A DNA stretch of 64,000 nt, from positions 1-64,000 of the IMG/VR virus record IMGVR_UViG_3300035698_010154; one strand, given 5' to 3'. This document shows positions 43,483 through 46,295 of the stretch, piece by piece; position 1 is the first letter of the stretch, and every line of letters begins with the position of its first letter. The notes beneath the pieces are model-generated. The model was not told the origin of the DNA. It searched no databases and saw only the letters and a program-made list of their open reading frames with translations. Made by a program: the position numbers and the translations under genes. This stretch comes from a virus.

Positions 43483-43698
43483 ATGAAACTAGAAATTGAA
43501 TCTGTAGAATTAAAAAACTTCCTATCTTATGGAAGTCGAGTTCAGAAGATACCCTTCCTAAAGGGATTAAATCTTGTTACGGGTATCGACCTGGATCGCA
43601 AGAGGAGTAATGGATCCGGCAAATGTGTGAGAGCTGATACTCTTATAGAGATTGAGTCTACAGAAAAAATAATAAAAATTTTAAAAGAATACAAATAG
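43483..43698 (+). CDS. gp46: gp46 N-terminal half fused to short N-intein (IntN)
   Basis: 71 residues. Residues 1-47 are the start of the SbcC/Rad50-like ATPase gp46 (LEIESVELKNFLSYGSRVQ), ending in the P-loop NGSGK. Cys48 then starts an intein N-fragment of only 24 residues (CVRADTLIEIEST...), and the frame ends at TAG 43696. The Walker A Ser is the first residue of the C-extein in the ORF at 43875. A functional gp46 therefore needs trans-splicing. Confidence 0.85.
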   Translation: MKLEIESVELKNFLSYGSRVQKIPFLKGLNLVTGIDLDRKRSNGSGKCVRADTLIEIESTEKIIKILKEYK

Positions 43699-43720
43699 CT
43701 ATAGTAAGGAGGCTATTTGT
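43691..43720 (+). promoter_or_regulatory. Hairpin presenting a Shine-Dalgarno in its loop
   Basis: ACAAATAGC (43691-43699) pairs perfectly with GCTATTTGT (43712-43720). The loop TATAGTAAGGAG holds most of a strong SD and the ATG at 43721 follows at once. The stem includes the stop of the gp46 N-half. This resembles the translational hairpins of T4 homing-nuclease genes. Confidence 0.65.
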
Positions 43721-43902
43721 ATGACTAAGATTTATCCAACAGAACAAGGTAAATGTTTGTATATGGAGCATACTAACACTATATATTAACAATAAGAATT
43801 GATCACTTAAAAAAAGTGGATATAATAGTATGGGAAGATGATTGGACAAATAATAAAGAATTGGTGATAAAAGAATGTTGTGTGAAATTGGAAAAGTTGT
43901 AA
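43721..43902 (+). pseudogene. Remnant of a small homing endonuclease between the gp46 halves
   Basis: ATG 43721 gives MTKIYPTEQGKCLYMEHTNT and soon stops (43787-43789). A second frame continues from about 43780 to TAA 43900 with RIDHLKKVDIIVWEDDWTNN. Joined by a -1 shift, the two read as one ~60-residue protein. The IVWEDDW end recalls Vsr/EDxHD-type nucleases known to sit between halves of split-intein genes. It is much shorter than a full enzyme, so it is probably a decayed copy. Confidence 0.5.
43799..43826 (+). promoter_or_regulatory. Possible promoter before gp46 C-terminal half
   Basis: TTGATC (43799-43804), 16-base spacer, TATAAT (43821-43826), 48 bases before the start of the C-half. 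It would let the two halves be transcribed separately. Confidence 0.4.
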
Positions 43903-46295
43903 GATTATATAAAGAGCATCCAGAGTATAAAGGACAAATTTTTGTAAATACTCCTTATGGTATGAGACAAATAATTGATGCCGATGTTATTGAAAAAAAT
44001 TCCGAACAATTCAGGCTAGTAACAGAATCGTTTGAATTATTTGGATCTGGACTTCATAGAGTAAAATGTAATGACAATTGGAGATACTTAAAAGATATAC
44101 AAAAATGGGATTCTGTCAATACCATAAATGGTGAAGAAACAATACAAGAGTGTTATAAAATAGATGAAAAATGTGATCTATATGATATACAGGTAGAGGG
44201 TGTTAAACAATATTACTCTAATGGTATATTATCACACAACTCTTCATTTTTAGAATCCGTGCCTTTCGCCTTGTTCGGTCAAGTACATAGGAACATCAAT
44301 AAGAAGCAAATTGTCAACTGGAAGAACCGGAAGCATTGTGAAGTCTCGCTTGATTTCAGAGTAGGTGAAGATCAGTACAGAGTATCAAGAGCCATCAAGC
44401 CTGATAATTTTGAGATATACAAGAACTCAAATTTAATAGACAAGCCTTCTCATGTAAAAGAGTATCAAGCCCAACTGGAAGAGATAATTGGTCTAAATTA
44501 TAAAACATTCATGTCTCTTATCCACTCTAACATCAACTCATCGGCTAAAATATTGACAATGGGTAAGCCCGAGAAAAGAAAACTCATAGATATGATGTTC
44601 GGATTGACTGTGTATAAGGATATCTCTGACCTTGCAAACAAGAAACTGAGAGTCATAACCGAGAAACTGAGAGAGATAGAACTCACTGGCTCTTCAAACA
44701 CAGACAGGATAAGTGATCTAAAGAGTACAGTAGATGATCTTGAGTACAGGGCCTCAAAGAAACCAATTCAGTATACTCAACTCAAAGAGAAAGAAGAAGA
44801 GCTTGAAGAGCTGAACGAGATTATGGATGAGTCCAAAGAGGAGTTAGAGAATAAAAGGACTCTACTAGCTGGTGAAGAGAGTACACTAAAGTATCTTGAA
44901 GGCATAATAGTCAATGTAGACAACTCGGGATATAAGCTTGGCTTGAAGTTAAAGAATATAGATGAATTACTGCTGAAGTCCGTTGATGTCGAGAGGATCA
45001 AGAAAGACAACAAACAATATAATGAATCATTAGATTTGTTGAAAACAGAGTTTGGTTCACTAGATGAGATAGAGTTAAAGTTGAATAGTAAGAGAAAGGA
45101 AATATCTGAACTTGAGATAGAGATTGGTACTATAAAGAATAGTCTTGATACATTAGAGAGTGAAATGACAAGGCTTAAGAGAGACAAGATCAAATCGGCT
45201 GCCAAACTTGAGAAACTTGAATCGGATATATGCCCAACGTGTAATCAAAAGATAGCCGATGATTCGTTATTGAAAGAAGAGCGAAAGAAGATGAAAGTTG
45301 TTGATCTAAAGATGGAAAAGGTTAACGAGAAATCACTTCGACTCAATAATGGGCAACTAAAAAATAAACTAACTCTACCAAAGCTGAGTGGCACAGAGAA
45401 TACACTTGATGATGTTTATAAACAGATGATTCATATAGGCAATCATATAGTGAATGTTGACTTCTCAGATAACGTAGATGAACTGAAAAGCAATAAGACA
45501 AGGTATGAACGAACTAATGAAAAACTGAGTAGCCTACATAAGAGCCTTAGTACTGATAAGTTCGATGTAGGCAAAACCATATCATTGTTGACAGAGAGGG
45601 TTGAGGAACTACAGAAAAGAGTATCAAAGGTATATGATCTTGAGCAAGAAATAGTCAAGTTACAGGAATTCATAGAGTTGGAGCGGAAGAACCAACTAGA
45701 ACTAAAAACACTCATAGACTCAAACAAGAAAAAGATTGCAACCCTGAATAAGAACACAAGTGAGTCAGTCAAAAAGAGCGAAACATTGATGAACTTGAAG
45801 AACTATGTATCATGTATAAAGGATATATGCAAGGATGAGAATATAAAACAGTATGCCATATCATCCGTTATGCCTTATATCAATGAACGAGCTAATCACT
45901 ACCTGTCAAAAGTTAACTACTCATTCTATGTTATGTTAGATAAGTGGTTAGAAATGGAAGTAAAGGGCCCTGGTATAGTTAATGCATCCTATGGGTCGCT
46001 GTCAGGTGGCGAATCGAGAGGAATTGATATAGCGATACAATTAGCATTCCTTGATGTGTCGAAATTGAGAGCCAGCATATTTCCTGACTTTTTGACATTA
46101 GATGAGTTATTGGATTCTTCAATTGATAGTGGTGGCATCTCACAACTGTTTAAGATCATAAGCTTGAAACAAAAGAAGGACGATTCAAAAACTTTCATCA
46201 TTTCCCACAGGAGTGAGCTAGATGATGCCGATTTAATTGATAATGTTTATCACGTATCAAAGCGTAATGGTTACTCAACTGTGGAAATAAGATAA
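43875..46295 (+). CDS. gp46: C-intein (IntC) fused to gp46 C-terminal part (SbcC/Rad50-like)
   Basis: 806 residues. Residues 1-122 are the intein C-fragment: NTPYGMRQII, a block B-like GSGLHRVKCNDNWRYLKDI, block F (LYDIQVEGVKQYYSNG) and block G ending ILSHN, followed by +1 Ser123. From 123 on it is gp46: SFLESVPFALFGQVHR, long coiled coils, a CPTCNQK zinc hook near residue 453, the signature SLSGGESRGIDIA, and DFLTLDELLD near the end. It is paired with gp47 upstream and uvsX downstream as in T4-like recombination clusters. Confidence 0.85.
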   Translation: MLCEIGKVVRLYKEHPEYKGQIFVNTPYGMRQIIDADVIEKNSEQFRLVTESFELFGSGLHRVKCNDNWRYLKDIQKWDSVNTINGEETIQECYKIDEKCDLYDIQVEGVKQYYSNGILSHNSSFLESVPFALFGQVHRNINKKQIVNWKNRKHCEVSLDFRVGEDQYRVSRAIKPDNFEIYKNSNLIDKPSHVKEYQAQLEEIIGLNYKTFMSLIHSNINSSAKILTMGKPEKRKLIDMMFGLTVYKDISDLANKKLRVITEKLREIELTGSSNTDRISDLKSTVDDLEYRASKKPIQYTQLKEKEEELEELNEIMDESKEELENKRTLLAGEESTLKYLEGIIVNVDNSGYKLGLKLKNIDELLLKSVDVERIKKDNKQYNESLDLLKTEFGSLDEIELKLNSKRKEISELEIEIGTIKNSLDTLESEMTRLKRDKIKSAAKLEKLESDICPTCNQKIADDSLLKEERKKMKVVDLKMEKVNEKSLRLNNGQLKNKLTLPKLSGTENTLDDVYKQMIHIGNHIVNVDFSDNVDELKSNKTRYERTNEKLSSLHKSLSTDKFDVGKTISLLTERVEELQKRVSKVYDLEQEIVKLQEFIELERKNQLELKTLIDSNKKKIATLNKNTSESVKKSETLMNLKNYVSCIKDICKDENIKQYAISSVMPYINERANHYLSKVNYSFYVMLDKWLEMEVKGPGIVNASYGSLSGGESRGIDIAIQLAFLDVSKLRASIFPDFLTLDELLDSSIDSGGISQLFKIISLKQKKDDSKTFIISHRSELDDADLIDNVYHVSKRNGYSTVEIR

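What the first reader, a model, noticed from the sequence alone, without database searches (positions are those of the whole stretch)
43483..46295. gp46 broken at its P-loop by an atypical split intein
The N-half ends in the Walker A motif NGSGK followed by a Cys and a 24-residue intein fragment; the C-half starts with a 122-residue intein fragment (blocks B, F, G) and resumes with Ser. A very short N-part and long C-part is the rare architecture reported for the phage AceL-TerL and VidaL inteins. The split falls between the catalytic Lys and Ser of the ATP-binding loop, so no half can be active alone: a safe point for the phage to control recombination.
Basis: partly seen in the sequence, partly recalled or inferred. 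Interest (0 to 1): 0.9.

Follow-up and report, generated by a model that had tools for sequence, protein, structure and literature searches.

The report
Split intein fractures phage gp46 gene
A phage DNA-recombination gene is broken in two inside its ATP-binding loop, and each piece carries part of a self-splicing protein tag that should rejoin them; this is the worn-down remnant of a mobile element that other uncultivated phages carry intact at the same spot.

Summary
gp46 (SbcC/Rad50-like) is split between Walker A Lys47 and Ser48. The N-half ends in a 24-aa intein fragment and the C-half begins with a 122-aa fragment; all catalytic residues are present. A relative with 72% identity (L001) has the exact empty site. 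An AlphaFold model of the 122-aa part (pLDDT 92.5) finds VidaL, an atypically split intein, as its best PDB match.

It is neither unique nor rare. IMG/VR holds about a dozen distinct gp46 genes fractured at the same Lys|Ser/Thr, mostly with an intact Vsr/DUF559-like homing endonuclease ORF between the halves. The closest, L147, shows that the window's 176-bp spacer keeps the last ~25 codons of that endonuclease. Between the window and L147 the intein is 61% identical but the host protein only 40%, so the intein moved horizontally. dN/dS of about 0.21 argues that it still works. A second gp46 lineage (L139-L141) nests among TerL P-loop inteins, so this P-loop was invaded at least twice.

Best reading: a trans-splicing, endonuclease-less 'fractured gene' (known type; gp46 host not found in the papers I could search). 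The idea that the phage uses it to control recombination has no support. Trans-splicing itself is untested.

The parts
43483..43623 (+). gp46 N-extein, 47 codons, ends in Walker A NGSGK
   Evidence: 89% identical to L001 residues 1-47
43624..43698 (+). intein N-fragment (I_N, 24 aa, block A, Cys1) and TAG stop
   Evidence: counterpart CVAFNTLINIECSKEIRKILEGM* in L147
43689..43722 (+). RNA hairpin over the N-half stop codon with AAGGAGG in its loop
   Evidence: 10 bp perfect, 12 bp in the fold; z=-3.1
43721..43789 (+). 22-aa ORF MTKIYPTEQGKCLYMEHTNTIY behind that ribosome-binding site; no homologue found
43822..43902 (+). remnant of a Vsr/DUF559-like homing endonuclease gene (last ~25 codons and stop), overlapping the C-half start by 28 nt
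   Evidence: 68% identical over 25 aa to the 346-codon ORF end in L147; best six-frame hit of HMMs of such tails, E=0.0053 and 4.8e-5
43875..44240 (+). intein C-fragment (I_C, 122 aa; blocks B, F, G; block B His codon 44055-44057; C-terminal HN)
   Evidence: (H61, D104, H121, N122 invariant in 39 sequences)
44241..46295 (+). gp46 C-extein, starts with Ser(+1)
   Evidence: PHROG 77 E=1.5e-82; zinc hook CPTC and LSGGE in the sequence

Best explanation
gp46 here is a 'fractured gene'. A split class-1 intein sits between Walker A Lys47 and Ser48. The two precursors are translated separately, the 24-aa and 122-aa intein fragments associate and fold into one Hint domain, and trans-splicing (Cys1 N-S shift, transfer to Ser+1, Asn122 cyclisation) restores a seamless ...NGSGK-SSFLES... 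gp46 (inferred). The element arrived by homing together with a Vsr/DUF559-like endonuclease gene lying between the intein halves; in this phage a deletion has removed that gene except for its last ~25 codons and stop (shown by comparison with L147). Shown: anatomy, empty site, homology, predicted fold, endonuclease remnant, horizontal movement of the intein. Inferred: that splicing occurs, and that the endonuclease of relatives drives homing.
For: Exact empty site in L001 and intein-free gp46 in L012-L016. I_C HMM E=1.3e-15; C1, block B His, block F Asp and HN|S all present. AF2 pLDDT 92.5, pTM 0.82; top PDB hit 6vgv VidaL, E=1e-7, TM 0.82. L147: same architecture with full endonuclease ORF; I_C 61% aa / 72% nt identical versus C-extein 40% / 51%; L001 is 72% identical in the extein yet lacks the intein, so intein and host histories conflict. 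I_C dN/dS 0.25/1.20. More fractured gp46 loci: L137-L141, L149, L154, L159, L162. Tree: window with L147 100/98, four gp46 inteins 98/82. Exteins under purifying selection versus L001 (N-extein dN/dS 0.07/1.0).
Against: No experiment. The 24-aa I_N alone is not significant in an open search. Purifying selection measured against L001 and L147 includes time before the insertion or the endonuclease loss. No contig nearly identical to the window was available to confirm the deleted spacer. The split position relative to the solved AceL-TerL and VidaL splits was not settled.
Confidence: 0.87

Rival explanations
1. Decaying intein: after loss of the endonuclease the split gene is on the way to a pseudogene and no longer splices.
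For: The endonuclease is reduced to a tail; the block order is intact but the spacer has drifted.
Against: All catalytic residues are kept, I_C dN/dS is about 0.21 against L147, both exteins are open and conserved. gp46 is essential for T4 recombination-dependent replication (established knowledge), and no second gp46 copy was found in the record.
Confidence: 0.08
2. The two halves work non-covalently without splicing, like genes-in-pieces ribonucleotide reductase split by a homing endonuclease (cited in PMC10448857).
For: Endonuclease-driven splitting of a gene is known.
Against: The break is inside the P-loop, and both ends carry matching intein fragments with complete catalytic residues, which such a split does not need.
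Confidence: 0.02
3. Sequencing or assembly artefact of a contiguous cis-intein.
For: Metagenomic contig, reads not available to me.
Against: Stops in all three frames over 176 bp, so no single indel restores one frame. The same split with the same overlapping starts occurs in other samples' contigs and in TerL of cultured phages.
Confidence: 0.02
4. RNA-level solution: a group I/II intron or ribosomal bypassing joins the halves.
For: A stable hairpin sits on the stop codon.
Against: No Rfam intron in the region, even at E=1, or in the window. Intein residues are intact at both ends. The hairpin encloses a ribosome-binding site for a separate ORF.
Confidence: 0.01
5. Domesticated switch: the phage uses conditional trans-splicing to time gp46 activity.
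For: Splicing is required for a P-loop; conditional splicing is reported for other inteins (abstracts).
Against: Presence is sporadic among relatives, the intein history conflicts with the host's, and no regulatory feature specific to splicing was found.
Confidence: 0.05

Closest known systems
gp46 fractured gene in uncultivated phage contig IMGVR_UViG_3300035698_020241 (L147); found here, not in the literature I could search
   Same: Same insertion point SGK|SSFLE, I_N 23 aa, I_C starting MLCEIGK.VKLYKEHPEY, 61% identical; endonuclease stop overlaps the gp46-C start by 25 nt (28 in the window).
   Different: Endonuclease ORF intact (346 codons); host gp46 C-extein only 40% identical.
VidaL atypically split intein (PDB 6vgv)
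   Same: Best structural match of the I_C model (TM 0.82); very short I_N; profile of the I_C family hits it at E=2.2e-11.
   Different: I_N 16 aa in VidaL (PMC13014065) versus 24 here; about 21% identity over the structural match.
AceL-TerL / GOS-TerL / Cat (PDB 6dsl) TerL-type atypically split inteins
   Same: I_N 25-30 aa, long I_C, Cys1, phage host; the family profile with gp46 I_C as first row hits CatC at E=4.9e-31.
   Different: gp46 I_C alone matches CatC only at E=0.022. TerL and gp46/SMC/helicase inteins fall on opposite sides of a starred branch, apart from L139-L141. +1 is Ser in gp46; it is Cys in this phage's split TerL and in the TerL loci surveyed.
Fractured genes with a split intein and an intervening endonuclease (Dassa et al. 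2009, not held; AceL NrdHF in PMC7891396; MIJ3 PolB in PMC6892783)
   Same: Two half-genes, split intein; an endonuclease between them in the relatives.
   Different: Here the endonuclease is deleted to a remnant. Host gene and split site differ; AceL NrdHF is typically split (98/48 aa) and class 3.
P-loop (TerL1-a) inteins of mycobacteriophages (PMC5050341)
   Same: Insertion between the invariant Walker A Lys and the Ser/Thr.
   Different: Found there in TerL; not reported there as split or in gp46 (only passages read).

Membership tests
Atypically split class-1 intein | I_N of 15-37 aa and correspondingly long I_C on separate ORFs (range from PMC13014065) | tested here: met
   24 aa and 122 aa
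Atypically split class-1 intein | Cys/Ser1, block B [ST]xxH, block F Asp, penultimate His-Asn, Cys/Ser/Thr+1 | tested here: met
   C1, S-G-L-H61, D104, H121-N122, S+1; H61, D104, H121 and N122 invariant in 39 sequences
Atypically split class-1 intein | Hint fold | tested here: met
   AF2 pLDDT 92.5; the PDB hits with E<=0.001 are nearly all inteins or intein-like (BIL) domains, VidaL first
Atypically split class-1 intein | Split after strand 2 (VidaL site) or after helix 1 (AceL-TerL site) | tested here: inconclusive
   The I_C model starts with a helix (residues 4-14) before the next strand; I_N is too short to place alone
Atypically split class-1 intein | Trans-splicing activity | not testable with these tools
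   needs expression
Fractured gene with homing endonuclease | Endonuclease ORF between the halves | tested here: not met
   Only a ~25-codon remnant in the window; an endonuclease-like ORF (about 340-380 codons) is present in relatives L147, L137, L139-L141
Fractured gene with homing endonuclease | Exact intein-free allele exists | tested here: met
   L001 SGK|SSLLES; L012-L015 GAGK|SS
gp46 / SbcC / Rad50 | Walker A, coiled coil with CxxC hook, LSGGE signature | tested here: met
   NGSGK, CPTC, LSGGE; PHROG 77 E=1.5e-82; split between halves as in the empty allele
Group I/II intron | Rfam covariance model match | tested here: not met

The most novel reading that the evidence does not exclude
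A lineage of atypically split inteins with Vsr/DUF559-like endonucleases specialises in Walker A motifs and hops between unrelated phage ATPase genes (TerL, gp46, other SMC-like ATPases, DnaB-like helicases). The gp46 P-loop was invaded at least twice: once by the window/L147 lineage and once from within TerL P-loop inteins (L139-L141; gp46 plus SMC-like inteins as one clade rejected, p-AU 0.003). The window shows the endonuclease-loss stage of the homing cycle.
Probability: 0.6. Interest if true: 0.6.

Novelty: new member of a known kind. Interest (0 to 1): 0.5.

Why it matters
gp46 is added as a host of naturally split inteins. Three stages of a homing cycle are visible at one gene: empty (L001, L012-L015), intein plus endonuclease ORF (L147, L137, L149) and intein with the endonuclease lost (window; L162 also lacks it). 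The comparison indicates recurrent, gene-to-gene invasion of Walker A motifs. Short 24-aa I_N fragments are sought for semisynthetic protein labelling, and this family supplies many untested natural pairs. The claim of regulation is not supported, so the general surprise is moderate.

Tried and rejected
Single-query scan with the I_C: its only hit, L037, was a chance KEHPEYKG match in an unrelated ORF. A two-sequence alignment scan found nothing; genome-contig scan, nothing. A first tree without close relatives left gp46 on a long branch with its place unresolved; this was resolved only after L147 and others were found. The idea that the gp46 intein derives from the same phage's TerL intein is rejected by the tree (starred 97/91 branch between them). 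tblastn of the spacer peptides against cultured phages gave no match; the 22-aa ORF has no homologue. Rfam introns: none. The Dassa 2009 paper was not in the library. The endonuclease-tail idea came from looking at the peptide, so its first HMM E-value (0.0053) is post hoc; L147, fetched later with a different query, is the independent confirmation.

Full report
OBSERVATION. The N-half ORF (43483-43698) encodes 47 gp46 residues ending in NGSGK, then 24 intein residues and a TAG stop; the C-half ORF (43875-46295) begins with 122 intein residues ending SHN and resumes SSFLES. The C-extein is SbcC-like (PHROG 77, E=1.5e-82). A relative, L001, with the same gene order and 72% extein identity has SGK|SSLLES without an insert, which fixes the splice junctions exactly; L012-L015 are also intein-free. 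Stops occupy all frames between the halves.

IS IT AN INTEIN? Pfam and NCBIfam give only weak hits on their own (Intein_splicing E=8e-4; intein_Cterm E=6e-4). An HMM built from 15 cultured-phage and same-phage inteins, without gp46, finds the C-part with E=1.3e-15 (4.3e-15 without this phage's own TerL). The 24-aa N-part is weak alone (E about 1) but is one of the three best of 1151 Cys-initial 24-mers in six frames; the other two are the TerL and portal intein starts. Catalytic residues are complete: Cys1, S-x-x-H61, D104, H121-N122, Ser+1. The AF2 model of I_C (pLDDT 92.5, pTM 0.82) has VidaL (6vgv) as first PDB hit, E=1e-7, TM 0.82; nearly all of the PDB hits with E<=0.001 are inteins or intein-like domains.

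SPREAD. In cultured phages I found no gp46 intein, but atypically split TerL is present: Providencia PSTRCR_127 and Serratia 92A1 with a SegE-like GIY-YIG ORF between overlapping halves, Vibrio EniLVp02 without one, and Tequatrovirus SG1, Krischvirus kaaroe and Shewanella phage Thanatos-2. Taipeivirus Magnus has a contiguous intein in the TerL P-loop. In IMG/VR, 65 of 80 TerL loci with a related I_C have it at an ORF start, i.e. atypically split; P-loop splits of TerL exist (L061, L070). A junction search then recovered gp46 genes split at the same Lys|Ser/Thr (L137-L141), and a family search returned 128 loci, 80 of which were kept: gp46, SMC-like ATPases and DnaB-like helicases, nearly all at P-loops as far as the N-half was seen.

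THE SPACER. In L147 the gp46 N-half, a 346-codon Vsr/DUF559-like endonuclease ORF and the gp46 C-half follow one another, with the endonuclease stop overlapping the C-half start by 25 nt. The window keeps the last ~25 codons (IIVWEDDWTNNKELVIKECCVKLEK versus LVVWENNWTNNKENIIKKCCVKLVK, 68% identical) and overlaps by 28 nt; DNA homology runs unbroken from 43828 to 44240. HMMs of such endonuclease tails pick this ORF first out of 1995 in the genome (E=0.0053 and 4.8e-5). That the relatives' ORFs are endonucleases rests on weak Pfam matches of a comparable ORF (DUF559, MTES_1575 in L061) and on gene position. The remaining ~130 bp holds a hairpin over the stop codon (z=-3.1) and a 22-aa ORF of unknown origin.

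MOBILITY AND CONSTRAINT. Between the window and L147, I_C is 61% identical in protein and 72% in DNA, whereas the C-extein is 40% and 51% and the N-extein 51% and 55%. L001, with a far closer host gene, lacks the intein. The intein's history therefore differs from the gene's: it has moved horizontally. I_C dN/dS is 0.25/1.20, i.e. still constrained. In the tree the window pairs with L147 (100/98), four gp46 inteins group (98/82), and L139-L141 nest within TerL P-loop inteins (97/96 and 99/80 branches); holding all gp46 and SMC-like inteins together is rejected (p-AU 0.003). The tree rests on only 125 columns.

MECHANISM. The best account is trans-splicing of two precursors to intact gp46 (inferred from anatomy and from characterised relatives), the split intein having been brought in by an endonuclease gene since lost here. 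The Lys|Ser/Thr position is a 'classic' P-loop intein site (PMC5050341), and atypically split inteins with I_N of 15-37 aa are known (PMC10189870, PMC13014065), as are fractured genes with an endonuclease between the halves (PMC7891396, PMC6892783). No paper in the library that I found reports a gp46/Rad50 intein, but key papers (Dassa 2009; the original VidaL and AceL-TerL reports) were not available, so novelty of the host gene is provisional. Regulation of recombination is not supported.

Noticed in passing
record G000:C1 63912-66079, just beyond the window (L003 437-2604): The same phage's TerL is also split by an atypically split intein (I_N 33 aa, I_C 109 aa; CatC match E=8e-14), with a truncated endonuclease tail ORF between and overlapping the halves (best six-frame hit of an endonuclease-tail HMM, E=7.7e-4).
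   Followed up: partly
window 9772-11775: T4-like portal protein (gp20) with a contiguous mini-intein of about 125-145 aa (Intein_splicing 36.6 bits in the protein scan).
   Followed up: partly
window 55257-58322 and 60016-62595: Phage-encoded PrkA kinase and SpoVR, each interrupted by a LAGLIDADG intein, with a further ORF between them (58706-60013) that looks YeaH-like; five inteins in one 77-kb record.
   Followed up: partly
window 43428-43461; L001 4819-4852: A 14-bp hairpin upstream of gp46 is present in both phages with different stem sequences (z -3.5 and -5.2): a likely RNA element or terminator conserved by compensatory change.
   Followed up: partly
L055 309-2060, L056 288-2033, L054 (Krischvirus kaaroe, Shewanella phage Thanatos-2, Tequatrovirus SG1): TerL N-half plus I_N is fused in frame to the endonuclease in kaaroe and Thanatos-2, and separate in SG1; annotated as hypothetical protein, terminase or endonuclease, apparently not recognised as split inteins.
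   Followed up: no
L070 537-4402; L021 and L051 (Campylobacter phage CP21): TerL genes carrying several inteins at once, some split and some contiguous, with endonuclease ORFs between pieces.
   Followed up: no
L139, L140, L141: A second lineage of gp46 P-loop split inteins that nests within TerL P-loop inteins: apparent TerL-to-gp46 transfer.
   Followed up: partly
L045 742-2856 (Vibrio phage vB_VmeM-32): TerL ORF starts with a 118-aa I_C at its P-loop, but no N-half is found in the preceding 1.1 kb or in the last 0.8 kb of the record; the partner may lie elsewhere.
   Followed up: partly
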